Of a stretch of 64,000 nucleotides of DNA, positions 5,589 through 35,977 are shown piece after piece. The notes beneath the pieces are model-generated. The model had not been told where the DNA came from. It ran no database searches and was given only the letters and a program-made list of their open reading frames with translations. Source of the stretch: Synechococcus sp. M16CYN. Its GTDB lineage: Bacteria > Cyanobacteriota > Cyanobacteriia > PCC-6307 > Cyanobiaceae. The position numbers and the translations under genes are program-made. Location of the stretch: assembly GCF_040371545.1 (NCBI RefSeq), contig NZ_AP029048.1, positions 806,001 through 870,000 of the forward strand, read 5' to 3'. The stretch's first letter is position 1. Each line of letters begins with the position of its first letter.

Positions 5589-7109
5589 ATGAGTCGACAG
5601 TTATTAAGTTGTTTATCAGCAGGATTGGCATTATTAGCCTTGTGGCCTCTATTCAACCTGGTAGGGGAAGGTCTACGAAGTTTTATGACTGACCCAACCG
5701 GTCTGGGTCCCGATGGTGGGCGTCAAATTTACGGCACTGCGATGCTGCTTGTAAGTAGTGCTCTGATTGGAACTATTATTGGAACTGCCAACGGCTGGCT
5801 GCTCATCAATTGCCGCTTTCGTGGTAGACGATGGCTACGCATCACACAATTTATTCCACTAGCAACTCCAGCTTACCTATTGTCTGCCACTCTTATCGAC
5901 CTGGGTAGCCGCCAGGGATGGCGTATCCACGGAATTGGATGGGGAATTATTGTGATGGCATTGACAACATACCCCTACGTATTTCTTCTCAGCACTGAAA
6001 GTTTTGCTGTGAGCGGACGGCGCTCGCTGGAAGCTTGCCTAAGCTTAGGGATGGGACCCTGGGCGGCCTTTCATAGGATTGCTCTTCCGATTGCCCTACC
6101 GGCGATCGCAGCCGGAGTCGCCCTAATGGGAATGGAAATTATGAACGAATTGGGAGCCGTCCAACTCCTAGGAATACCTAGCTTGTCGGCAGGAATTCTA
6201 GAAGCTTGGCAAGCGGATGGCAGTCCTACTGGTGCTATTCGTTTGGCTCTTATTACTTTCATGATTGTATTGGGTCTCATAATATGCGAACGACGACTGC
6301 GTCAACACGGTCGCCGTTGGAGTGATAGCACCGCGAAGGATGATGCTATAGCGTGGGAACTACGTGGCACCCGAGCTTTAGCAGCACAGCTTCTCGCCTT
6401 TGTACCGCCACTGATCACCTTGGGAACCCCTTTAATTTGGGCTGTAACCAACCTAGATCAGCTACAGAGTAATCTTACCGACGACCTGTTTCAACTTAGC
6501 CTTCGCAGCCTTCTTCTGGCGCTTACCGCATCCATCCTGGCTGTTAGCTCGGCGCTGCTGCTAGCTATTGCCAAGCGATGGACCGACTCTCCTTGGTTAC
6601 ATAGCCTCATGTTTTTTGCGGGGATGATTTACGCTGTCCCGGGCACTGTTTTAGCTCTAGCTCTGCTATTAACAGGAGCTCCCTGGCAGATCGCGCCTAT
6701 TGTTCTTTTGCTATGGGGTTATAGTAACCGATTTTTGGCTGTGGCAAAGGAAGGACTTGATGCAGCCCTTGAGCGTATAAGTCCCAATCTTGATGAAGCT
6801 GCGACGATCATGGGTTTCGATTGGCAACACGTATTGCGTCGCATCCATCTACCACTGCTAAAAGGACCCATAATTGTAGGTTTTCTTCTGGTATTTGTTG
6901 ATACAGTAAAAGAGTTGCCACTCACGTTTGCCCTACGCCCCTTTGACTTTGACACACTTTCGATCCGTGTGTACCAATGTGCAAGCGACGAGCGCTTAGC
7001 TGAGGCCTTGCTACCAGCACTGATGATTCTCGCACTTGGACTCATAGCTGCTGTGGCCTTAGTCCCTACTTTTGATCACCCTCCCAGTCGAAGATTACTG
7101 GATCCTTAG
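5589..7109 (+). CDS. Iron-type ABC transporter permease (FutB/FbpB/ThiP family)
   Basis: A 506-residue integral membrane protein of the fused two-domain permease type used by ferric-iron and thiamine importers. Two homologous halves are visible, each with about six hydrophobic helices. Each carries an EAA-like cytoplasmic loop that docks the ATPase: EACLSLGMGPWAAFHRIALP at about 148-167 and EAATIMGFDWQHVLRRIHLP at about 402-421. Length and the two EAA loops fit FutB-like proteins. No ATPase or binding protein is adjacent; a solute-binding protein gene lies far away at 60610-61620. Scattered fut-type genes are usual in marine picocyanobacteria. Iron as substrate is inferred from family, not shown. 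Confidence 0.88.
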   Translation: MSRQLLSCLSAGLALLALWPLFNLVGEGLRSFMTDPTGLGPDGGRQIYGTAMLLVSSALIGTIIGTANGWLLINCRFRGRRWLRITQFIPLATPAYLLSATLIDLGSRQGWRIHGIGWGIIVMALTTYPYVFLLSTESFAVSGRRSLEACLSLGMGPWAAFHRIALPIALPAIAAGVALMGMEIMNELGAVQLLGIPSLSAGILEAWQADGSPTGAIRLALITFMIVLGLIICERRLRQHGRRWSDSTAKDDAIAWELRGTRALAAQLLAFVPPLITLGTPLIWAVTNLDQLQSNLTDDLFQLSLRSLLLALTASILAVSSALLLAIAKRWTDSPWLHSLMFFAGMIYAVPGTVLALALLLTGAPWQIAPIVLLLWGYSNRFLAVAKEGLDAALERISPNLDEAATIMGFDWQHVLRRIHLPLLKGPIIVGFLLVFVDTVKELPLTFALRPFDFDTLSIRVYQCASDERLAEALLPALMILALGLIAAVALVPTFDHPPSRRLLDP

Positions 7110-7156
7110 CGCGATACAAAATTGAGCCAAGCGTAAGCATATTACTGAACACTTAG

Positions 7157-8083
7157 TCAGATTATCGTTCTGGTTCGCACTGCACTAAAGACGCGATGAC
7201 CACTCAGGATTCCGACTGCCAATACGTCGGCCATCGTAGATATAATCCGATGACTAAACGTGATCATCAGGAGTGGTGCTTCCTCTACCGATCCGCTAAG
7301 GCGAAGTAGCAAGATGGTTTCAAATACTCCCAAGCCGCTAGGGGCGCCTGGTGTCATCAAACCAATCGCATAAGCTAAACCAAAGGCGGCCAGCCAATGC
7401 GATATCTTTGGCTGATATATATCAAACGCCTGAACACAACAAAAGAAGCCTGCAAAGCGAAAGAGTACAAATATTGTTGCTGCCATGAGGGGCGTCCAAG
7501 GGTACCCTTGATGGTCACTGTTTTCTGTGATAAGAGAACTCATACCAGCCGACTGCAGCTTAGAAGCCTTCGAATGCTTCAACCATTGCAAGATCGGCTC
7601 TCTAAAACGAGGTATCATTGTCAGCGCTGGTAGTGGCGCAAGTATCACTAGGCCGCTTTGCCATCCCCCAACTATAAGCGTTAGTAGAGACGCCGCGATA
7701 GTTAAGAGGGGATCAAGGATGACGCCTGTTAGAGCAGGACCTGCTCCAATTGAGGAGCGAAGCAAGCGGATGCGCTCTACCAGATGCCAAATGCCGCCAG
7801 GCAAGTATTTACGTAAATTGCTACGAATAAATAAGGGCACTACGGCAAGATCCTCAGACAGCCAACCAAGCCAATCCAGCACTGTTCGCCAGGCCCAGCC
7901 ATTGATCAGGATGCTTAACCAAGTAAGACCCAGGCCAAGCATCAGCCATAACCAACCTTGTACATCCAGGCTTTGCTGACGTAGTTGTACACTCTGCCGA
8001 ACAAGGGTTACTGTGATGAAGACCAAGCTGATCGGCGTGATCCACAACTTTAGTGAACGTAGTCTGCCCGTCACCACATCCAT
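7157..8083 (-). CDS. UPF0104 / lysylphosphatidylglycerol synthase TM-region-like membrane protein
   Basis: A 308-residue polytopic protein with about seven or eight hydrophobic segments. The family signature is visible: FIRSNLRKYLPGGIWHLVER at about 85-104 and, near the C-terminus, GLMTPGAPSGLGVFETILLLRL at about 239-260. These match the UPF0104/AglD2-like flippase-related family. Members are membrane proteins linked loosely to lipid or glycan export, and the exact function is unknown. It is the last gene of an overlapping minus-strand operon; its start overlaps the end of larC by 13 bases. Confidence 0.82.
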   Translation of the reverse strand: MDVVTGRLRSLKLWITPISLVFITVTLVRQSVQLRQQSLDVQGWLWLMLGLGLTWLSILINGWAWRTVLDWLGWLSEDLAVVPLFIRSNLRKYLPGGIWHLVERIRLLRSSIGAGPALTGVILDPLLTIAASLLTLIVGGWQSGLVILAPLPALTMIPRFREPILQWLKHSKASKLQSAGMSSLITENSDHQGYPWTPLMAATIFVLFRFAGFFCCVQAFDIYQPKISHWLAAFGLAYAIGLMTPGAPSGLGVFETILLLRLSGSVEEAPLLMITFSHRIISTMADVLAVGILSGHRVFSAVRTRTII

Positions 8084-14047: not shown

Positions 14048-14173
14048 GATGATTTAAGGTTAGGCCGGTTCTTCTATCCATCTGCCGCAATTGGGACGTG
14101 TGTACAGACGTAACCGGACGATTTTAGGTCAGGATGATGCACGGTTTACACTTGCCTCTTGGCGTCGGTTCCT

Positions 14174-15475
14174 GTGACAACATCTACGTTGAACACCAGC
14201 CGCTCTCAGGCTATTTTCGGCGCAGCGCAGGGCTTGATGCCCGGTGGAGTGAGTTCCCCTGTGCGCGCGTTCCAATCGGTCAGCGGTCACCCGATCGTAT
14301 TTGATCGGGTGAAAGGCTCCTATGCCTGGGATGTTGATGGCAACAAATACATTGATTACATAGGTAGCTGGGGGCCCGCTATCTGCGGCCATGCCCATCC
14401 TGAAGTGATCAACGTCCTTCAAGAAGTAATTGAAAAAGGTACAAGTTTCGGAGCACCTTGTGCTCTTGAGAACACACTGGCGAAGATGGTGATCGATGCT
14501 GTGCCCAGCGTCGAGATGGTGCGCTTCGTGAACAGTGGAACCGAGGCTTGTATGGCTGTTTTACGTCTTATGCGTGCTTATACCGGCCGCGACAAGGTAA
14601 TCAAGTTCGAAGGCTGCTACCACGGTCACGCGGATATGTTTTTGGTAAAGGCTGGTTCCGGCGTAGCGACCCTTGGCCTACCGGATTCACCGGGTGTTCC
14701 GCGTAGCACTACGGCCAACACCCTTACCGCTCCCTACAATGGTCTTGAGGCAGTTAAAGCTTTATTTGCAGAGAATCCAGATGCGATTTCTGGCGTCATT
14801 CTCGAGCCTATTGTTGGCAATGCCGGCTTCATTCAGCCTGAGCCAGGCTTCCTAGAAGGGCTAAGGGAACTAACAAAAGAAAACGGTGCCCTTCTTATTT
14901 TTGACGAGGTGATGACTGGTTTTCGCATTAGCTACGGCGGAGCGCAAGCCCATTTTGGTGTCATACCGGACCTTACGACCATGGGTAAAGTGATAGGAGG
15001 AGGCCTTCCAGTAGGGGCCTACGGAGGTCGCGCCGACATCATGCAAATGGTCTCTCCAGCAGGCCCGATGTATCAAGCAGGAACCTTGAGTGGAAATCCT
15101 CTCGCAATGGCCGCTGGCATCAAAACCCTTGAGTTACTAAAGCAGACCGGTAGTTACGACAAGTTGGCTGCCACAACTGAGAAATTAATAACTGGTATTA
15201 AAGATGCCGCCAAGGAAGTTGGTCTCCCGATCACTGGAGGCAGCGTGAGTGCCATGTTTGGTTTTTTTCTCTGCGAAGGTCCGGTTCGTAATTTTGAAGA
15301 AGCGAAGGCCACTGACTCTGAGCGTTTTGGCAGATTGCACCGTGCCATGCTCGAACGTGGGGTTTATCTTGCGCCATCAGCGTTCGAAGCTGGCTTCACA
15401 TCCTTGGCCCACTCCGATACTGACATTGACGCCACGGTTAGTGCTTTTCGAGAAAGCTTTGCCGAAATCGTTTAG
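14174..15475 (+). CDS. hemL: Glutamate-1-semialdehyde 2,1-aminomutase
   Basis: HemL makes 5-aminolevulinate from glutamate-1-semialdehyde, the committed C5-pathway step for heme and chlorophyll, using PLP. Clear motifs are [13 protein letters not shown] near the N-terminus, [24 protein letters not shown], and the PLP-lysine region [17 protein letters not shown] near residue 270. A TTG at 14159 would give 438 residues. I prefer the GTG at 14174, which gives [12 protein letters not shown], because picocyanobacterial HemL proteins usually start only a few residues before the NTSRS segment. No strong terminator follows directly. Downstream begins a long gene-poor tract. Confidence 0.95.
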
Positions 15476-16009
15476 TTGTTAGGTTTCTGTTGCTAGCTCC
15501 TTCTCCGCACGAGTGTGCTAAACTAAATTTGCTAGATTGTATCGATAGTGATTGACCAGCTAATAACATTGCATTGAGGATGCGCGGAGATCGCCGCCGC
15601 GAAGTATCCCAAGTAAGTTTATACCCGCGTTCAAGGCAAATCCAAAACGTTAATAGCAGCAGATATGTGCCATGCTTTAGACCTCTCGCTGAGGACTTTA
15701 AACCCAGTTCCTCTTTTCTCGTCACTTGACAGGAAACAAACTAAACGAATTACCAAGTGCTCTTTGATTCTGTGGTTATCGTTTATCACCGGCGGCTACC
15801 GGCTAGTAGAGCAGCTATGTCCCAGTCCAGCGTACACACTAATGTTAAGAGAGCGACTTTCTAATGTGCGCTGTAAGGTCTTCCCTACGAACAGTTCCTG
15901 AGGGGTTAGTGAATCAAGCTAGTTAACTAGGGTAGGAAGTATCAAATCAAATATACCCGCTGTTCATGCGCCCAGCTTCATACTGGTGTTGCTATTTGAC
16001 CGACAATGA

Positions 16010-16041
16010 CTCGTTAATTCTCTTAATCGAGAATTAACGAG
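16010..16041 (+). terminator. Perfect 13-bp hairpin followed by a T run, no gene upstream
   Basis: Bases 16010-16022 (CTCGTTAATTCTC) are the exact reverse complement of 16029-16041, with a six-base loop. GTATTTTTG follows. This is a Rho-independent-terminator-like structure with an AT-rich stem. No intact gene ends just before it on the plus strand, so it may terminate an undetected RNA or belong to a gene lost by decay. Confidence 0.55.
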
Positions 16042-16324
16042 GTATTTTTGACGATTTAAGCATCTGAGTCGAATGGATTACTTTAAATTCAACTTAACTA
16101 TTACTTCATATTTCTGACCTTGGGGATTGTGGAGGTACAGACTAAGGAGATACTAAAATTATAAAATCACGTCATACAATGTCGTCAAATGATGCAAAAA
16201 TCTCTTTCCGATTAAGTACCTATCTACATGGATGACATCAAAATCTAGACGGTTATAAAATTATACGAGAAATCTCATTTAAGAAACTAAACTAATCATC
16301 CTAAATAGCCCGCAGCGGTTCGCC

Positions 16325-16456
16325 GTGATTGATAATCAAGAATCACTTAAAGTACCCTCAACTGTTTGTTTCGGCTGTCTACACCAACAGCAAAACGCTG
16401 CTGCCGAGCGACTCACCTTAGCTGATCAGGCCCACTTCGCTATTGAGACGGATTGA
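16325..16456 (+). CDS. Possible 43-residue ORF or gene fragment
   Basis: A frame from GTG at 16325 to TGA at 16454-16456 encodes 43 residues with a cysteine pair (VCFGCLH) and an Ala-rich helical stretch (NAAAERLTLADQAHFAI). Its base composition is nearer to coding DNA than the flanks. No family is recognised and no clear ribosome-binding site was seen. It may be a small gene or the tail of a lost one. Confidence 0.25.
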   Translation: MIDNQESLKVPSTVCFGCLHQQQNAAAERLTLADQAHFAIETD

Positions 16457-16689
16457 CTCTAGGATAGAGTTGAGTTGGGGACCACACCGTATATTCAACG
16501 GTAAACTCAAGCGTTAACGAGATCTAAACGGTTATGGGGTAGAGAGGCTGAAAAAAGCCTAGAAGGGGTTAAGAAGATATAAAATCAGCTTGAGAGGTGG
16601 CTTTCAAAAAGCAGAAAGCGTTTCAAACACTGCCTTAACCCCCCATAGACTAAGAAAAGCATTAGAAGAAAAGTGAGAGACTAAAAAGC

Positions 16690-17980
16690 AAGATCCAGAT
16701 CAGAGACGAAATAGCGACCTTTGACCAGTTTTTTATCTTACTACCTAAAGACATAAATCAACGAGACAAATTCTTCGAGGAAATATTCATTCCTCGATAC
16801 TTGAAAGAAGGATTCGAGTGGAATATGAAAGTAGGTAAGATTTGATTATGGAAAGAATATTCACAAGAATAGGGCAAAGACTGCGATACTAATCTTGTCC
16901 TCGAATACAAATAAAAACATATTAGGCAGCCTAATGCAAATATATTTTGCCAGATAAAGATATCTTAAAAGCGGAGATTAATAGCTTTTTCAGCTATATC
17001 AAATTATTCAAGAATCAGCGTTCGATTACTGACTTTATAAGTAGATAAATAAGGAAAATATGTAGCAAGTCATCCAAAAGTAAGAGAAGCAGGTTGTGTA
17101 CTTTCTCGGAGAACATTTCAGGAAATTAGTGGTTGAGTTTCTATTATCAACACAAGATCTCTCTACTGGAAAAAGAAAAGATAAAAGAGTTCTAAGATCT
17201 CATCAAGAAGAGAAAATCAAAATGTTATAGTGGAATTAAAAACAGAGGTTAACTACCTATGGCATGTGGCACAGGCAGAATGCTAACTTCTTTATAGGTA
17301 AATAAAAAACTCAAAGCCAAATCAGCGCTAGCTCTTGTATTCTTTCTAAGCCTATTAGCTCAAACCCCAAGAAAATAGGCTGTAATAAGTAAAAGAGATC
17401 TCGATTGGATATACACATGCTCGGGCAAAATAGTAACCACAAAGGATCAAGCTTTTAACGACTGGATCGAGAACACAAATAAATTAGAGGTTGCAGTCAC
17501 AAGTGATTCCGGTGAAATCCAAAAGTTTCTTTCAGAAAATCATAAGGGAACTATCTTCTTTATTTACCAGTCATTGCTATCGGTAATAAAAACACAAGAC
17601 TTGTAGAAAAGCCTTGCTTTCGATATGACATTTGTTGACAAAATACATCGACACGCCGACAAAGCTTTTAAAATATTTCATTCTATTCTTGACGACAAAA
17701 TAATCATAGTAAAGCAAAGATTATCCATGATTGCAGCTCCAAGAATACTCAGGTTTCATATCAAAGAAATACTAAAATGAACGAGATAAAAGTCATATCA
17801 ATTGATGATGAGAAAATATTTGGCGACGTTTTTCATGAACCAAAATTCTCACAAGTAATTGAAGCTAATCTCTTAAGCGACTACCAAGTCTTACTTATTA
17901 GCATTGACGATTATTCAATCAGAGAAAAAGTCGTAAGCAAAAACTGCTTGCCATCAATGATGAGTAGGATTGCAATGTAA
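16690..17980 (+). pseudogene. Decayed SF2 helicase with N-terminal nuclease-like domain (COG4889-like, restriction-type)
   Basis: Consecutive frames together spell the start of a large restriction-type helicase. From 16711 (frame 1) comes TFDQFFILLPKDINQRDKFF and then RYLKEGFEWNMKVGKI-stop-LWKEYSQE-stop-GKDCDTNLVLEYK. This matches the family N-terminus ending in a D-LVLE-K nuclease-like core. About 16960-17140 (another frame) gives KDILKAEINSFFSY. Then come RSHQEEKIK (about 17190-17220) and a Walker A box MACGTGRM (17259 onward, expected ACGTGKT). ALVFFLSLLAQTPRK follows, then FFIYQSLLS, then VDKIHRHAD (17634 onward, motif II), then RLSMIAAPRIL (motif III, expected TATPR). After a frameshift at about 17777 comes ISIDDEKIFGDVFHEPKFSQ...LLSDYQVLLISIDD. 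In-frame stops lie at 16843, 16870, 16912, 17295, 17376 and 17604. The second RecA lobe and everything beyond are missing. I infer a dead defence gene. Confidence 0.85.
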
Positions 17981-18878
17981 AGAGTATAATATTAATAGTA
18001 GTACTCATTAAAGTAACACAAAAAATTTAATTTATATAGAAAACTTTTTATAGTTGAATCAAACGTGCCAAAATTTTGCAAGAAATTAAAATATTTTGTG
18101 TAGAAGAGTTTTTTGAAGTTATCAAACTTGATGCTTAGATGAAAAAGATAAATACAGTTTGCTAATAAATTACTGCTTAATCCTCTCTGACTAATAAAGA
18201 TTCACTCTTGTCTTATAGGTATATTTCAATATTTATTACCGCAGCATTTGCATTGAGATATGTTAAATTTTAACTTAAGTTAATTTACATCACATCGATA
18301 ATGCTGTTAAACAAATAACATTTTTCTCACAAAATTTAGAACTACTGAGCAAATAATACAGTATTATAATTGAGAATTGTTTAAGAATTTCACCCATGGT
18401 CAGTCTTTTCTAAGAAACCGTTATGTTCAATAGTGTTTGGTCAATTTTCGCCAACTTAATGGTTGCTGTTGTGATCGCGAGTTATTTGATAGACGTAGTG
18501 AAAAATCTACGTTAATAAAGATAGTTGAAATGTGAGATTAATTTATTTGTATCTTACTTTTAAATAAAACAGATAAACTTTGTAAATACGTTATACATTA
18601 ATTACAAAAGTAATACTTGAGTTTTATGATTAATTAGGTTGTTAGTTAATTCAACTAACAAGATTGAAATGAAGAGATTAAATAAGTTTAATTAAAATAA
18701 TTAAAGAAGTAACGTTCTTTAAAGAAGTAACGCCCTTCTAAGCGAAAACTTTTATCCATCCGCCACCTGCGTGAGAATGAGTAAGCCACCGGCTTTAAAT
18801 AAAATTCTGGCTTAAGTACCTAATGCAGTTAATATCAGTCGCGAGTAGAATTGGGGATAGCGTAGTACCGGAGTAGCA
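17981..18878. other. AT-rich tract after the helicase pseudogene
   Basis: About 900 bases of very AT-rich sequence with frequent stops. I see no further helicase motifs, so the C-terminal part of that gene is gone or unrecognisable. One 30-codon frame with a hydrophobic helix (18423-18515) is listed separately. A direct repeat GAAGTAACG occurs twice close together at about 18707 and 18725. Confidence 0.5.
18423..18515 (+). CDS. Possible 30-residue single-helix membrane peptide
   Basis: ATG at 18423 to TAA at 18513-18515 encodes 30 residues, almost all one hydrophobic helix (SIFANLMVAVVIASYLIDVV) with a basic C-terminus (KNLR). The shape recalls small photosystem or cytochrome b6f subunits, but I could not match it to PsbX, PsbY, PsaM, PetN, PetM or Psb30. 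Its local G+C is higher than the flanks. It may also be chance. Confidence 0.3.
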   Translation: MFNSVWSIFANLMVAVVIASYLIDVVKNLR

Positions 18879-19022
18879 ATGAAAGGTCTTGTCCAATGGT
18901 TCGGCGATGCTTGCGCTTACGCCATGGGCGCTGTTGGCTTGGATGAAAGGCGTCAAGTGCCACCACCAATAGGGGTGCAACCTTACCATGGTATTCCGAT
19001 GAAGCATCGGCACAGAGCTTGA
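18879..19022 (+). CDS. Small protein of 47 residues, unknown function
   Basis: ATG at 18879 to TGA at 19020-19022 encodes a 47-residue product with an N-terminal amphipathic helix (MKGLVQWFGDACAYAMGAVG), then LDERRQVPPPIGVQPYHG and a basic tail MKHRHRA. The helix-then-proline-rich layout looks like a genuine short cyanobacterial protein. The opposite strand has a longer open frame (18795-19091), but its translation is rich in Ser/Thr/His and lacks any domain, so I regard it as a shadow. G+C rises to coding-like values exactly over this ORF. Confidence 0.5.
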   Translation: MKGLVQWFGDACAYAMGAVGLDERRQVPPPIGVQPYHGIPMKHRHRA

Positions 19023-19261
19023 CGTTAACATCACCTTCATTGGTGGTAGTGTTAGGGACACGAGAGCCTGACGCTTCTTGTTCGCAATCAAATAAATTGA
19101 GGTCAGCAGTTCATCTCTTTTAAACCAAGTGATAAGAGGTATCGATGCTTTTGCTCGTCACTAAAGCCACCCCTAATTTTCTATCTAATAAATAAAGTTA
19201 TAGATGGAAATTTCTGTCTGCAATGTAGCTATTCCAAACAGAAATAATTTACATTGGGGCT

Positions 19262-19438
19262 ATGATAGTGAGTGGAAGTGATGCCTGGCTGTCACGCGAT
19301 CTAAATTTCAGTTATGGTTCTTCTCATGCTTCCATCTTGTCAGAGTCAGTTTCATTGCTATTGAGGAGGCGGGGTTTTGATATAATAGGGGTGACTGCTC
19401 AGGAAGGGATGTTTTTAGTGTTCAGATGGTTTGTTTAG
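19262..19438 (+). CDS. Possible 58-residue ORF or fragment
   Basis: ATG at 19262 to TAG at 19436-19438 gives 58 residues: a polar N-terminus (SGSDAWLSRDLNFSYGSSHA), a basic RRRGFDIIGV segment and a hydrophobic end (MFLVFRWFV). It has no stop over 59 codons in a moderately AT-rich setting. I recognise no family. It could be the remains of a longer gene. Support is weak. Confidence 0.25.
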   Translation: MIVSGSDAWLSRDLNFSYGSSHASILSESVSLLLRRRGFDIIGVTAQEGMFLVFRWFV

Positions 19439-19657
19439 TCAAGCAATGGTTGAGTAAATAGAATTTTGGTGAGTTTTAGAAGCAGGTTTGCTGCCTGGGT
19501 GTTCTTGCTCTTCTATCGAACCTACACGCCATCAACGCGTAGTTGAGATCCATTAACGAAGCAGCTATCCGAATTATTTTTGCAATCTTAACAGTGTATC
19601 TGAATCAAATTAGATGGTATTGTGTGATTTAATTATCTAAACTTTAAGTTTCAACTC

Positions 19658-20155
19658 TTACCGATAGTTCTCAAATTGGAGAGGGACATTTAAATCGTCC
19701 TCTATGCTTTTTATAAGTTGAATAGCAGCCTGAAGATCGTCCTTGCTTTTGCCAGTGATCCGTATGCTTTCTCCTTGGATAGCAACAGTTACTTTCTTGA
19801 GTTTGTCGCGCACGCTTTTACTCAGTTGCTTAGCAGTTTCTTGACTTAAACCCTTACGCAACTTCACAACTTGCTGGATCCGGTTACCCCCAACAGACTT
19901 AGGCATCTGGAAGTCAAAGATCTTCAATGAAAGGTTCCTTTTTATGGCTTTTGTCCGCAATATTTCCTCTACAGATTGGAGGGTCATGTCACTGTTGGTT
20001 GTGATCACTAACTCAGTTGCCTCCAACACAATCTCAGTGCTAGAATCCTTTAGATCGTAGCGATTAGACACATCCCGACGCACTTGGTCAAGGGTATTCA
20101 CCAATTCTTGTCGGCTGAAGTCAGACACCACATCAAAGGAGGAAGTGCTGGCCAT
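19658..20155 (-). CDS. yajQ: YajQ family (UPF0234) nucleotide-binding protein
   Basis: The 165-residue protein begins SSFDVVSDFSRQELVNTLDQ, the YajQ signature. It continues with RYDLKDSSTEI and ends with the family C-terminus IRITGKSKDDLQAAIQLIK...LNVPLQFENYR. The length matches the family. Structures of relatives show two ferredoxin-like folds, and some bind cyclic-di-GMP or tRNA; the role in cyanobacteria is unknown. The ATG gives the expected N-terminus. It lies divergent from the MAPEG gene with 56 bases between them. Confidence 0.95.
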   Translation of the reverse strand: MASTSSFDVVSDFSRQELVNTLDQVRRDVSNRYDLKDSSTEIVLEATELVITTNSDMTLQSVEEILRTKAIKRNLSLKIFDFQMPKSVGGNRIQQVVKLRKGLSQETAKQLSKSVRDKLKKVTVAIQGESIRITGKSKDDLQAAIQLIKSIEDDLNVPLQFENYR

Positions 20156-33367: not shown

Positions 33368-33931
33368 TTAGTCTGAGGTAAGCCGCATGTGTTGCTCCAG
33401 TTGATGAAGCGCCTGGTTCAGATCATCGTTGATCACCACGGCATCAAATTCGTCTTGCGCGTTCAGTTCATCACGCGCTCGGCTTAAGCGGCGCTGAATC
33501 GCATCCTCCGTATCTGTTCCTCGACTACGAATTCGTCGTTCTAATTCTTCAAAGCTGGGAGGCGCCAGAAAAATCTGGAAGCCGTCAGGGAAGCTGGTTC
33601 GCACTTGCCTCGCACCTTCCAGCTCAATTTCCAATAGGACAGGACGACCCGCGGCTAAGTGCTGCTCGACTGGAATACGGGGAGTACCGTAACAATTAGC
33701 AGCAAATTCAGCCCACTCGAGTAATCCTCCCTCGGCCACCAGGTCATTGAATCTGTCACGCGAATAGAAGAAATAGTTAACCCCCTCTTTCTCTCCTTCC
33801 CTGGGGGTTCGTGTGGTAGCTGAAACCGACAGCCAAATCTTTGGATATTGATCCAGCAGTCGCTGGATCAATATCCCTTTACCAACCCCACTCGGCCCTG
33901 TAATTACAATGAGCCTACTACTGCCTGCCAT
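33368..33931 (-). CDS. gmk: Guanylate kinase
   Basis: Phosphorylates GMP to GDP with ATP. The P-loop [10 protein letters not shown] is at about 11-20 (GKG in place of GKS/T), followed by [20 protein letters not shown] (GMP-binding TR-R-GE--G--Y-F) and a lid region [15 protein letters not shown]. Length 187 is normal. Convergent with psaJ, 46 bases apart. A 1.2 kb gap lies upstream. Confidence 0.96.
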
Positions 33932-35173
33932 TTAAAAGCTGTCTAATGTGCAAGCAAGCAGATTAAGAGACTTTTCTTATCATACCTAGTAAACAAGACG
34001 TCAAGCTTTCAACCTATTTAGCTCATCATAATCTAAAATCTTTAGAGAGTAGCTTAGCTTAGGCTAAACCAGCAAAAAAATTTACCGCACCTCGTCATGG
34101 TCATTGTTTCATTGTAAGATGTAAGTCTATTTGGACAGAACAGTCGCCCACGGCAATCCATCGCTCTATTATGAGCAAACGCGACTGGTCATATCTGGTC
34201 GTCAACTTCGAGACCATCGACTCAAAGTTCCTCCGATCAACATCAAAAGCAACTACTACTTTCATCCCTACTTCAAGGATGTTGGTTGGACAGAAAAGAA
34301 AATATTCAAAATTGACTAGCACGATTGCGATAATTTCCTTCTATCTGAAAGAGTTTCCTCGATTAAGACTGTTTAGAAGATTTATTCATACACCTAACAG
34401 TCCAGTTAGCTGACAGATAACGTCCGCTAGTTCAACCTAGATTTAAGGATCTAAATAAGACTCCGTGTAAATGAAGGCCTACATTTGCGGTTGAATTAAA
34501 TAAAATGTAACGTTTTCAACAAAATTATCGTGATGACGATTGCTAAGTCTAAGGAAGAAAATCCAGAGAAATACACCAGAAATGAACCAATCTTGTACTT
34601 TAGAGAAATTAAGCTCTGCTAACAACGACTTGAATGATTAACTTTAAGCAAGGAAATGTATAGGCCAGTCGGCTTTCAAGAGTAAGGTGGATAATCCCTG
34701 GTCAAGATAACTGCCAACGTTCAGACATTGACACAATGATAAAAACTCATCCTCTGAAACCAACGGGCTGTACCAAATCAATGATTCGAGCTGGATTGGG
34801 GCGGTTTGTAAAGTAGCCCGGATTGGTTTGAATCAGGGTAAGGCTAAAAAGACGACCCCAGTTCAACGTACGTAATAGGCGCTACTCCGACTATGTATGC
34901 GGTCATCAAATGTTTCAATGACCCGGGCGATAAAGACATCTTGGCTCTATGACAAGTGCAAACCGGGCTTGGGGTAGACTATAGTCAGGACTTAGCCGAA
35001 AATCTTAGACAGTTTATTATCTATGCACGCTTGGAGCGGTCCGGTAACTATTTGCCATGGATAGAAGAGGACTTATCTAGATAACTCTCAGCATGCAAAG
35101 CAGCGTCGGTTTCTCTTTCGCCTGATCTGACCAAGAATCCGGGCTGACCTGTTGTTTCGCCTCTTCCGCGTCC
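33932..35173. other. Intergenic stretch without a firmly supported gene
   Basis: About 1.2 kb between gmk and tatC. The only protein-like frame is 34131-34319 (listed separately). Other frames are short and featureless. No tRNA or known RNA structure was seen. G+C is lower than in the flanking genes. Confidence 0.5.
34131..34319 (+). CDS. Possible 62-residue ORF, unknown
   Basis: Encodes MDRTVAHGNPSLYYEQTRLV, then ISGRQLRDHRLKVPPINIKS, then NYYFHPYFKDVGWTEKKIFK, ending in ID. The composition is protein-like, with charged and aromatic residues well spaced, but no family is recognised. An antisense frame of 73 codons overlaps. It could be a remnant of a longer gene, since it lies in a gap of the decaying type. 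Confidence 0.25.
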   Translation: MDRTVAHGNPSLYYEQTRLVISGRQLRDHRLKVPPINIKSNYYFHPYFKDVGWTEKKIFKID

Positions 35174-35977
35174 GTGTTTGAACGTCCCGACAGCTCTCCA
35201 GCCCTCCGGCCCCCTCCACCGATTCCGGTTGGGAATGGTTCTGATGACGCTGATCTGCCCAATGAGGTGGAAATGCCATTGATGGATCATTTGGCAGAGT
35301 TGCGTGAGCGATTGCTACGAAGCCTTCTAGCCATCGTGCTGGGAGCAGTGCTCTGTCTGATTGGGGTGAAGCCCTTAGTGCAATTTTTGGAAGCACCAGC
35401 AAAAGGAGTTCGTTTTTTACAGCTGGCGCCGGGGGAATTCTTATTTGTGTCATTGAAAGTGGCAGGTTATGCCGGCCTAGCCCTGGCTTTGCCTTACGTG
35501 TTATTTCAGTTGTTAGCCTTTATTTTGCCAGGATTAACTTTGCGGGAGCGTCGCTTAATTGCGCCAGCTGTAGCTAGTTCGGCGGTTTTGTTCTTTGTGG
35601 GTCTTGCCTTTGCTTGGTGGATCTTAGTACCAGCGGCCCTGAAGTTTTTGGTCAATTACGGGGCCGATATTGTGGAACCACTTTGGTCAATCGAGCGGTA
35701 TCTCGATTTTGTTCTACTACTGATGTTGGCCACTGGCCTGGCTTTTCAGCTTCCCGTGCTACAACTACTTTTGGGGCTCCTTGGGTTAGTCCAATGGCGT
35801 TCTATGCTTAGCGCTTGGCGATGGACTGTTTTGGGTTCGGCACTCGCTGGTGCCGTATTGACTCCCTCTACTGATCCAATCACGATGCTGCTGCTCGCTG
35901 GTGCGATCACAGGACTTTTTTTAGTGGGAGTAGCACTAGTGGCTCTCACCGAGAGTTTCAGATCAGAAACTCTTTGA
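35174..35977 (+). CDS. tatC: Sec-independent (Tat) translocase subunit TatC
   Basis: TatC is the twin-arginine receptor subunit in thylakoid and plasma membranes, needed here for exporting Rieske-type proteins such as PetC. The signature MPLMDHLAELRERLLRSLLA lies at about 34-53, followed by six helices and the conserved TPSTDPITMLLLA near the C-terminus. The GTG at 35174 gives 267 residues with a proline-rich leader; an ATG at 35273 would give a shorter protein of about 234 that still holds all conserved parts. The 3' end overlaps the convergent DUF3067 gene by 20 bases. Confidence 0.95.
   Translation: MFERPDSSPALRPPPPIPVGNGSDDADLPNEVEMPLMDHLAELRERLLRSLLAIVLGAVLCLIGVKPLVQFLEAPAKGVRFLQLAPGEFLFVSLKVAGYAGLALALPYVLFQLLAFILPGLTLRERRLIAPAVASSAVLFFVGLAFAWWILVPAALKFLVNYGADIVEPLWSIERYLDFVLLLMLATGLAFQLPVLQLLLGLLGLVQWRSMLSAWRWTVLGSALAGAVLTPSTDPITMLLLAGAITGLFLVGVALVALTESFRSETL

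What the first reader, a model, noticed from the sequence alone, without database searches (positions are those of the whole stretch)
16690..17980. Decayed restriction-type SF2 helicase in a streamlined cyanobacterium
The reading frame is broken by at least six in-frame stops and several frameshifts, but the ordered motifs are readable. They are an N-terminal nuclease-like D-LVLE-K, a degraded Walker A (ACGTGRM where ACGTGKT is expected), motif II VDKIH (expected VDEAH), SMIAAPR (expected SMTATPR) and DDEKIFG with LLSDYQV. Two stops (16843, 16870) sit exactly where family members have Trp in IWLW and EWG. This implies G-to-A changes of TGG. The second RecA lobe and the rest are missing. A known COG4889-like defence enzyme appears to be lost here, giving direct evidence for erosion of phage defence.
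Basis: partly seen in the sequence, partly recalled or inferred. Interest (0 to 1): 0.75.

Follow-up and report, generated by a model that had tools for sequence, protein, structure and literature searches.

The report
Dead restriction-like gene in a cyanobacterial symbiont
A broken and badly worn remnant of a DNA-cutting, probably virus-fighting enzyme gene sits in the genome of what appears to be a cyanobacterium living on a dinoflagellate; it shows ordinary gene decay in a shrinking genome rather than a new kind of system.

Summary
Window 16711-17950 (+) aligns to residues 1-414 of an intact 912-aa relative in the same genus (Mrr nuclease + SF2 helicase + four HA repeats), with nine stops placed identically by two relatives and six or seven frame changes. 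Four stops sit at Trp codons; 67 of 160 residues invariant in five intact relatives are changed. The second helicase lobe and HA repeats are not detectable above shuffled controls. The intact relatives match the Type ISP enzyme LlaBIII over nuclease and motor but show no methyltransferase domain.

Context changes the story. The genome (1,940,073 bp plus a 17,326-bp plasmid) fits CregCyn, the reduced cyanobiont of the dinoflagellate Citharistes regius. The pseudogene fills an interval where the two nearest relatives keep six genes; three of these were searched for in the whole genome and not found. A second restriction locus (HsdM/HsdS) is also broken. The helicase was found in only 3 of 33 congeners, so its loss may be turnover of a mobile accessory gene; selective erosion of phage defence is not shown. 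New member of a known kind; modest interest.

The parts
16711..17950 (+). pseudogene of an Mrr-nuclease/SF2-helicase protein, residues 1 to about 414 of the 912-aa relative L007:7906-10644
   Evidence: tblastn; frame-aware alignment; Pfam ResIII
16711..17058 (+). remnant of the Mrr_cat_2 nuclease domain (residues 1 to about 116); invariant Asp61 changed to Asn, Gln75 to stop
17058..17950 (+). remnant of linker and first RecA lobe (motifs I, II, III recognisable and all altered)
17951..18084 (+). possible further decayed collinear stretch (residues 415 to 463, includes TFYS.IKRAKILQE against TFHSRVKSAKKFSE); not above chance taken alone
   Evidence: alignment; shuffles
16843..16845 (+). TGA stop at Trp45 of the relative
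16870..16872 (+). TAG stop at Trp54 of the relative
17295..17297 (+). TAG stop at invariant Trp199
17376..17378 (+). TAG stop at invariant Trp226
15476..19657 (.). gene-poor 4.2-kb interval between hemL and yajQ that holds six further genes in the two nearest relatives G006 and G014
18879..19022 (+). small 47-aa ORF still open, the only interval item found to be shared with relatives (L010, L011, L033)
14159..15475 (+). hemL, intact flanking gene
19658..20155 (-). yajQ-like gene, intact flanking gene

Best explanation
It is a dead gene. An accessory Mrr-nuclease/SF2-motor/HA-repeat enzyme, of a family that in part travels on mobile islands, once stood between hemL and yajQ in the ancestor of this cyanobiont. 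It lost function, took AT-biased point mutations (TGG to TAG/TGA), stops and indels, and lost or wore away its second helicase lobe and HA repeats. It makes no product now. While alive it most likely worked as in Type ISP enzymes: an ATP-driven motor moves along double-stranded DNA and carries a nuclease, with the HA repeats perhaps taking the place of the missing methyltransferase and recognition domain. Shown: homology, truncation, stops, mutation bias, absence of neighbouring genes. Inferred: mobile origin, antiphage role, timing relative to symbiosis, role of the HA repeats, absence of any product.
For: Homology E 1.15e-33 against the window; nine shared stops and six or seven frame changes; at sites invariant in three intact relatives, GC-to-AT changes at 166 of 374 GC sites against AT-to-GC at 81 of 475 AT sites, and second-codon-position change 0.27 against 0.16 and 0.19 in two intact controls; GC 33% against 42-43% in the three closest intact copies; intact relatives carry Mrr_cat_2, ResIII, Helicase_C and HA and G014 matches LlaBIII residues 14-657 at E 1.7e-95; two intact copies (G013, G167) lie 3 to 7 kb from a tRNA-Ser and a phage-type integrase; three neighbour genes were not found in the whole genome.
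Against: No read data, so assembly indels cannot be excluded one by one; but substitution-level decay over 400 codons between intact flanking genes is not an assembly artefact. Third-position excess (0.56 against 0.31 and 0.27) shows that much of the divergence arose under constraint, so the gene may have been functional for part of its branch. Low GC alone proves little: two intact relatives, G371 and G125, have 32 and 30%. The nuclease piece alone gives no Pfam hit. The helicase piece alone finds nothing among PDB sequences and no phage record.
Confidence: 0.9

Rival explanations
1. Selective erosion of phage defence: life in the host chamber lowers phage exposure, so this genome lost its restriction systems preferentially.
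For: A second restriction locus is broken in the same genome: HsdM with two in-frame stops and split over three frames, HsdS with a stop and a frame change; one HsdR query found no HsdR in that stretch, the plasmid or the window. Nakayama et al. describe chamber life and broad gene loss.
Against: Six other neighbours of the same interval have no detectable counterpart in the window either; the helicase is rare in congeners (3 of 33); the paper reports no marked bias by functional category in the number of lost proteins, transporters being the largest group. Only four families were searched as a defence inventory.
Confidence: 0.25
2. The stops and frameshifts are errors of whole-genome amplification and long-read assembly.
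For: The published CregCyn genome was made from amplified DNA with hybrid assembly; reads were not available.
Against: Residue-level decay: 67 of 160 invariant residues changed, including the helicase motifs; flanking hemL and yajQ are intact at 93 and 87% identity to G006.
Confidence: 0.03
3. The remnant did not die here but was brought in already dead, for example as part of an inserted island.
For: None of 25 relatives' intervals has a helicase match, and two intact copies lie in mobile-looking regions.
Against: No tRNA gene lies between hemL and yajQ and no island boundary was seen; an integrase remnant was not searched for separately.
Confidence: 0.15

Closest known systems
Type ISP restriction-modification enzymes (LlaBIII, PDB 4xqk; LlaGI, 5ffj)
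   Same: Mrr-family nuclease followed by SF2 motor; intact relative G014 matches LlaBIII 14-657 at E 1.7e-95
   Different: Four intact relatives show no Pfam match to a methyltransferase or recognition domain and have 3 to 11 HA repeats after the motor; the window copy is dead and truncated
Intact Mrr/SF2/HA helicases of picocyanobacteria and other bacteria (L007, L047, L048, L049; genome hits)
   Same: Direct relatives; the fragment aligns collinearly with residues 1-414
   Different: L007, L047, L048 and L049 are open frames; the window copy is not
CregCyn genome (PMC11150560)
   Same: Chromosome of 1.94 Mbp and plasmid of about 17 Kbp, sister of clade IV strains CC9902 and BL107; the window genome has 1,940,073 + 17,326 bp and its hemL scores best against G014 and G006
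   Different: The paper's main text holds none of the words pseudogene, restriction, defense or phage; its supplements were not seen

Membership tests
Pseudogene of the Mrr/SF2/HA helicase family | significant collinear similarity to intact members | tested here: met
Pseudogene of the Mrr/SF2/HA helicase family | disabling changes (stops, frameshifts, lost motif residues) | tested here: met
Pseudogene of the Mrr/SF2/HA helicase family | second helicase lobe and HA repeats present in the remnant | tested here: not met
   no similarity above 200 dinucleotide shuffles
Pseudogene of the Mrr/SF2/HA helicase family | defects confirmed by reads | not testable with these tools
   no read data
Type ISP restriction-modification enzyme (intact relatives) | N-terminal Mrr nuclease | tested here: met
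   Mrr_cat_2 E 3.6e-32 in G014; also G167, G371, G125
Type ISP restriction-modification enzyme (intact relatives) | SF2 helicase-like motor | tested here: met
   ResIII and Helicase_C; LlaBIII match
Type ISP restriction-modification enzyme (intact relatives) | methyltransferase and target recognition domain in the same chain | tested here: not met
   no such Pfam match in G014, G167, G371, G125 (HA repeats follow the motor) nor in G026 (no HA); LlaBIII match ends at 657 of 1578
COG4889 predicted helicase | match to the COG4889 profile | not testable with these tools
   no COG library on hand
CregCyn as source organism | 1.94-Mbp chromosome plus a plasmid of about 17 Kbp, nearest to clade IV | tested here: inconclusive
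   sizes fit and hemL is nearest to G014 and G006, but that these are the clade IV strains is recalled from genome sizes, and the record name was not seen (empty)

The most novel reading that the evidence does not exclude
The intact relatives are a methyltransferase-free branch of the Type ISP motor-nucleases, carried in marine picocyanobacteria on islands that integrate at tRNA-Ser and found in many other genomes, in which a variable number of HA repeats (3 to 11) does the target recognition; and the dinoflagellate cyanobiont has lost this system and a Type I system one after the other, the helicase long ago and HsdM recently, because chamber life relaxes selection for restriction.
Probability: 0.15. 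Interest if true: 0.55.

Novelty: new member of a known kind. Interest (0 to 1): 0.3.

Why it matters
It documents, with intact relatives to compare, the death of a restriction-like gene in what seems to be a bacterium in reductive symbiosis, together with a second broken restriction locus. That makes it possible to ask by counting whether defence genes go first when a free-living cyanobacterium moves onto a host. The fragment itself has no function that I can see, and such accessory genes are patchy in relatives too, so the single case is ordinary.

Tried and rejected
Looked for the C-terminal half (from residue 405) with the proteins of four relatives against 17950-19657: best 20.4 bits against shuffle means of 18.2 to 19.0 and 95% points of 20.8 to 21.9, so nothing. 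Looked for remnants of the interval genes of relatives: none by tblastn; one DNA match at about 18812-19013 that is the 47-aa ORF. Looked for phage DNA in the flanks 15476-16710 and 17951-19655: none. Helicase piece against phages: no match; against plasmids: 25 records, all under 60% identity, 15 of the 20 listed annotated as type ISP enzymes. Trees: with ten rows the fragment's place was unresolved; after leaving out the long row G026, nine rows put it with the five other picocyanobacterial rows against three outgroup rows at 100/100, and with G014, G013 and G167 at only 71/86.6; its own branch is long, so I lay no weight on its place. The call for the NDT neighbour in the own genome was empty without a positive control; PRT and GT92 were run with three positive controls. 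An exact window pattern in genome contigs found nothing, so no record name was obtained. No structure was predicted. The ResIII count across the genus (8 in this genome, 2 to 13 in the others) seems to me to be mostly housekeeping helicases and its list is cut, so it is not used. Paper searches on R-M and symbiont decay, tycheposons and HA domains were seen as listings only, apart from passages of PMC10696648, which lists defence genes in coastal Synechococcus and was not needed.

Full report
What is there. With the intact protein of G014 (L007:7906-10644, 912 aa) as query, tblastn against the 64-kb window gives hits at 16711-17058, 16938-17765 and 17696-17941, with E down to 1.15e-33; the other three hits of that query have E 2.9 or more. 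A frame-aware alignment pairs 448 codons with 197 identities for G014 and 452 with 183 for G013, counted to the far end at 18084; the secure part ends near 17950, at residue 414.

State of decay. Up to 17950 nine stops are placed identically with both relatives; four sit at Trp codons (16843 TGA; 16870, 17295 and 17376 TAG). Frame changes up to 17950 number seven with G014 and six with G013. At nucleotide sites invariant in three intact relatives, G or C became A or T at 166 of 374, and A or T became G or C at 81 of 475. Change per codon position at those sites is 0.31, 0.27 and 0.56; the intact controls G371 and G125 show 0.28, 0.16, 0.52 and 0.39, 0.19, 0.61. So the second position is relaxed, but part of the divergence arose under constraint. 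Of 160 residues invariant in five intact relatives, 93 are kept and 67 changed, among them Asp61, Gln75, Lys193, Thr194, Glu314 and Thr346. By my count on the printed LlaBIII alignment Thr346 is the counterpart of LlaBIII Thr376, whose alanine mutant has about 4-fold lower ATPase (passages of PMC7049714). GC is 33% against 42-43% in G014, G013 and G167 and 48% for the window, though intact G371 and G125 have 32 and 30%. The second lobe and HA repeats are not found above shuffles.

What the gene was. The G014 protein carries Mrr_cat_2, ResIII, Helicase_C and four HA domains; G167 has six HA domains, G371 eleven and G125 three; the more distant G026 protein has nuclease and motor but no HA. G014 matches LlaBIII (PDB 4xqk) over residues 3-610 at E 1.7e-95 and LlaGI at 3.9e-74. 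No methyltransferase domain appears in these five chains. Type ISP enzymes are single chains of nuclease, SF2 motor, coupler, methyltransferase and recognition domain (abstract of PMC4666363 as shown in the search listing). The relatives therefore share the Type ISP nuclease-motor half but fail its methyltransferase test. The two best PADLOC matches are restriction enzymes, over residues 6-609 and 16-609 only. Antiphage action is inferred, not shown.

Distribution. With the fragment as query, 4 of 34 genomes of the genus match, this one included; the other three are G014 (45%), G013 (41%) and G026 (30%), all open frames, that of G013 cut by a contig end. Nineteen of the 34 are near-complete, so some absences may be gaps. 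With the intact protein, 10 of 388 genomes sampled from the class match at E 1e-60. Sixty-four IMG/VR loci encode relatives, 18 of them reaching beyond residue 800. In G013 and G167 the gene lies 3 to 7 kb from a tRNA-Ser and an integrase of the phage type. The fragment's place in a tree is unsure.

Which organism. The window lies in a genome of 1,957,399 bases in two contigs, 1,940,073 and 17,326. Its hemL scores best against G014 (94%) and G006 (93%). CregCyn, the symbiont of Citharistes regius, has a 1.94-Mbp chromosome and a plasmid of about 17 Kbp and is sister to CC9902 and BL107 (PMC11150560: abstract and the whole of Results and discussion). I take the window to be CregCyn by inference; the record name was not obtained (one search found nothing). 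That G006 and G014 are CC9902 and BL107 is recalled from genome sizes. The paper's main text has no occurrence of pseudogene, restriction, defense or phage, and it is the only held paper with the word CregCyn; its supplements were not seen.

The site. I fetched the hemL-yajQ interval from 25 of the 33 other genomes of the genus, namely those in which both genes were found on one contig. An NDT-like and a PRT-like gene are present in 25 of 25, a hypothetical protein and a small protein in 24 of 25 each, a cytidine-deaminase-like gene in 19 and a GT92-like protein in 13; none is in the window (these labels are mine, by eye, not from a family search). PRT and GT92 are absent from the whole genome while three control genomes ring; NDT is absent too, without a control in that call. 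None of the 25 intervals has a helicase match. Of 72 mechanically found ORFs shared by G006 and G014 across the syntenic stretch, 10 have no window match, and six of the ten lie in this interval (counted by hand; some of the 72 may not be genes, and matches with internal stops were not examined). So this is a local loss of a conserved block plus a dead accessory gene.

Wider decay of restriction. PF02384 finds an HsdM in this genome split over three frames (chromosome 311300-312207), and PF01420 finds HsdS in two stretches, one with a TAG; pieces were confirmed with Pfam. Similarity to HsdM of G021 begins further upstream, at L050:8665, and that stretch holds two in-frame stops before the first open piece; one of them stands where G021 has Trp, by eye. 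HsdS has a stop and a frame change. One HsdR query found nothing in this stretch, the plasmid or the window; the rest of the genome was not searched for HsdR. This locus looks far less worn than the helicase, and its frame changes could still be assembly errors. Six of 33 congeners have PF02384 matches and 3 of 33 have PF01420 matches; PF00145 rings in 2 of 33 and not here. So this genome holds restriction-type remains where most congeners show none, which weakens the claim that symbiosis caused the loss.

Verdict. A real pseudogene, correctly read by the first stage in almost all details. Its setting is most likely a reducing symbiont; its family is a methyltransferase-free relative of Type ISP enzymes; and its loss may be no more than turnover of a mobile accessory gene.

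Noticed in passing
L050:8665-11718 (G000 chromosome about 310664-313717): Second decayed restriction locus in the same genome: HsdM with two in-frame stops and split over three frames, HsdS with a stop and a frame change, near a serine recombinase at L050:7252-7956 (-)..
   Followed up: partly
window 15476-19657: Six genes kept between hemL and yajQ in G006 and G014 have no detectable counterpart here; three of them searched for are absent from the whole genome..
   Followed up: yes
window 18879-19022 (+): Open 47-aa ORF conserved in L010, L011 and L033, the only shared item of the interval that was found..
   Followed up: partly
window 18423-18515 (+): A 30-aa membrane-like ORF without a convincing counterpart in the 25 relatives' intervals..
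   Followed up: no
window 33931-35174: A 563-aa ORF shared by G006 and G014 has no detectable counterpart; the gap is full of stops in the frames read..
   Followed up: no
L048:6082-10107 and L047:8075-11185: Intact relatives carry 11 and 6 tandem HA repeats; the number varies from 3 to 11 in the four chains counted..
   Followed up: partly
L007:5590-6270, 7051-7893, 17077-17964: Two PD-(D/E)XK proteins stand just upstream of the intact helicase, and an ORF that looks to me like a phage RNA polymerase fragment lies further on (last label by eye)..
   Followed up: no
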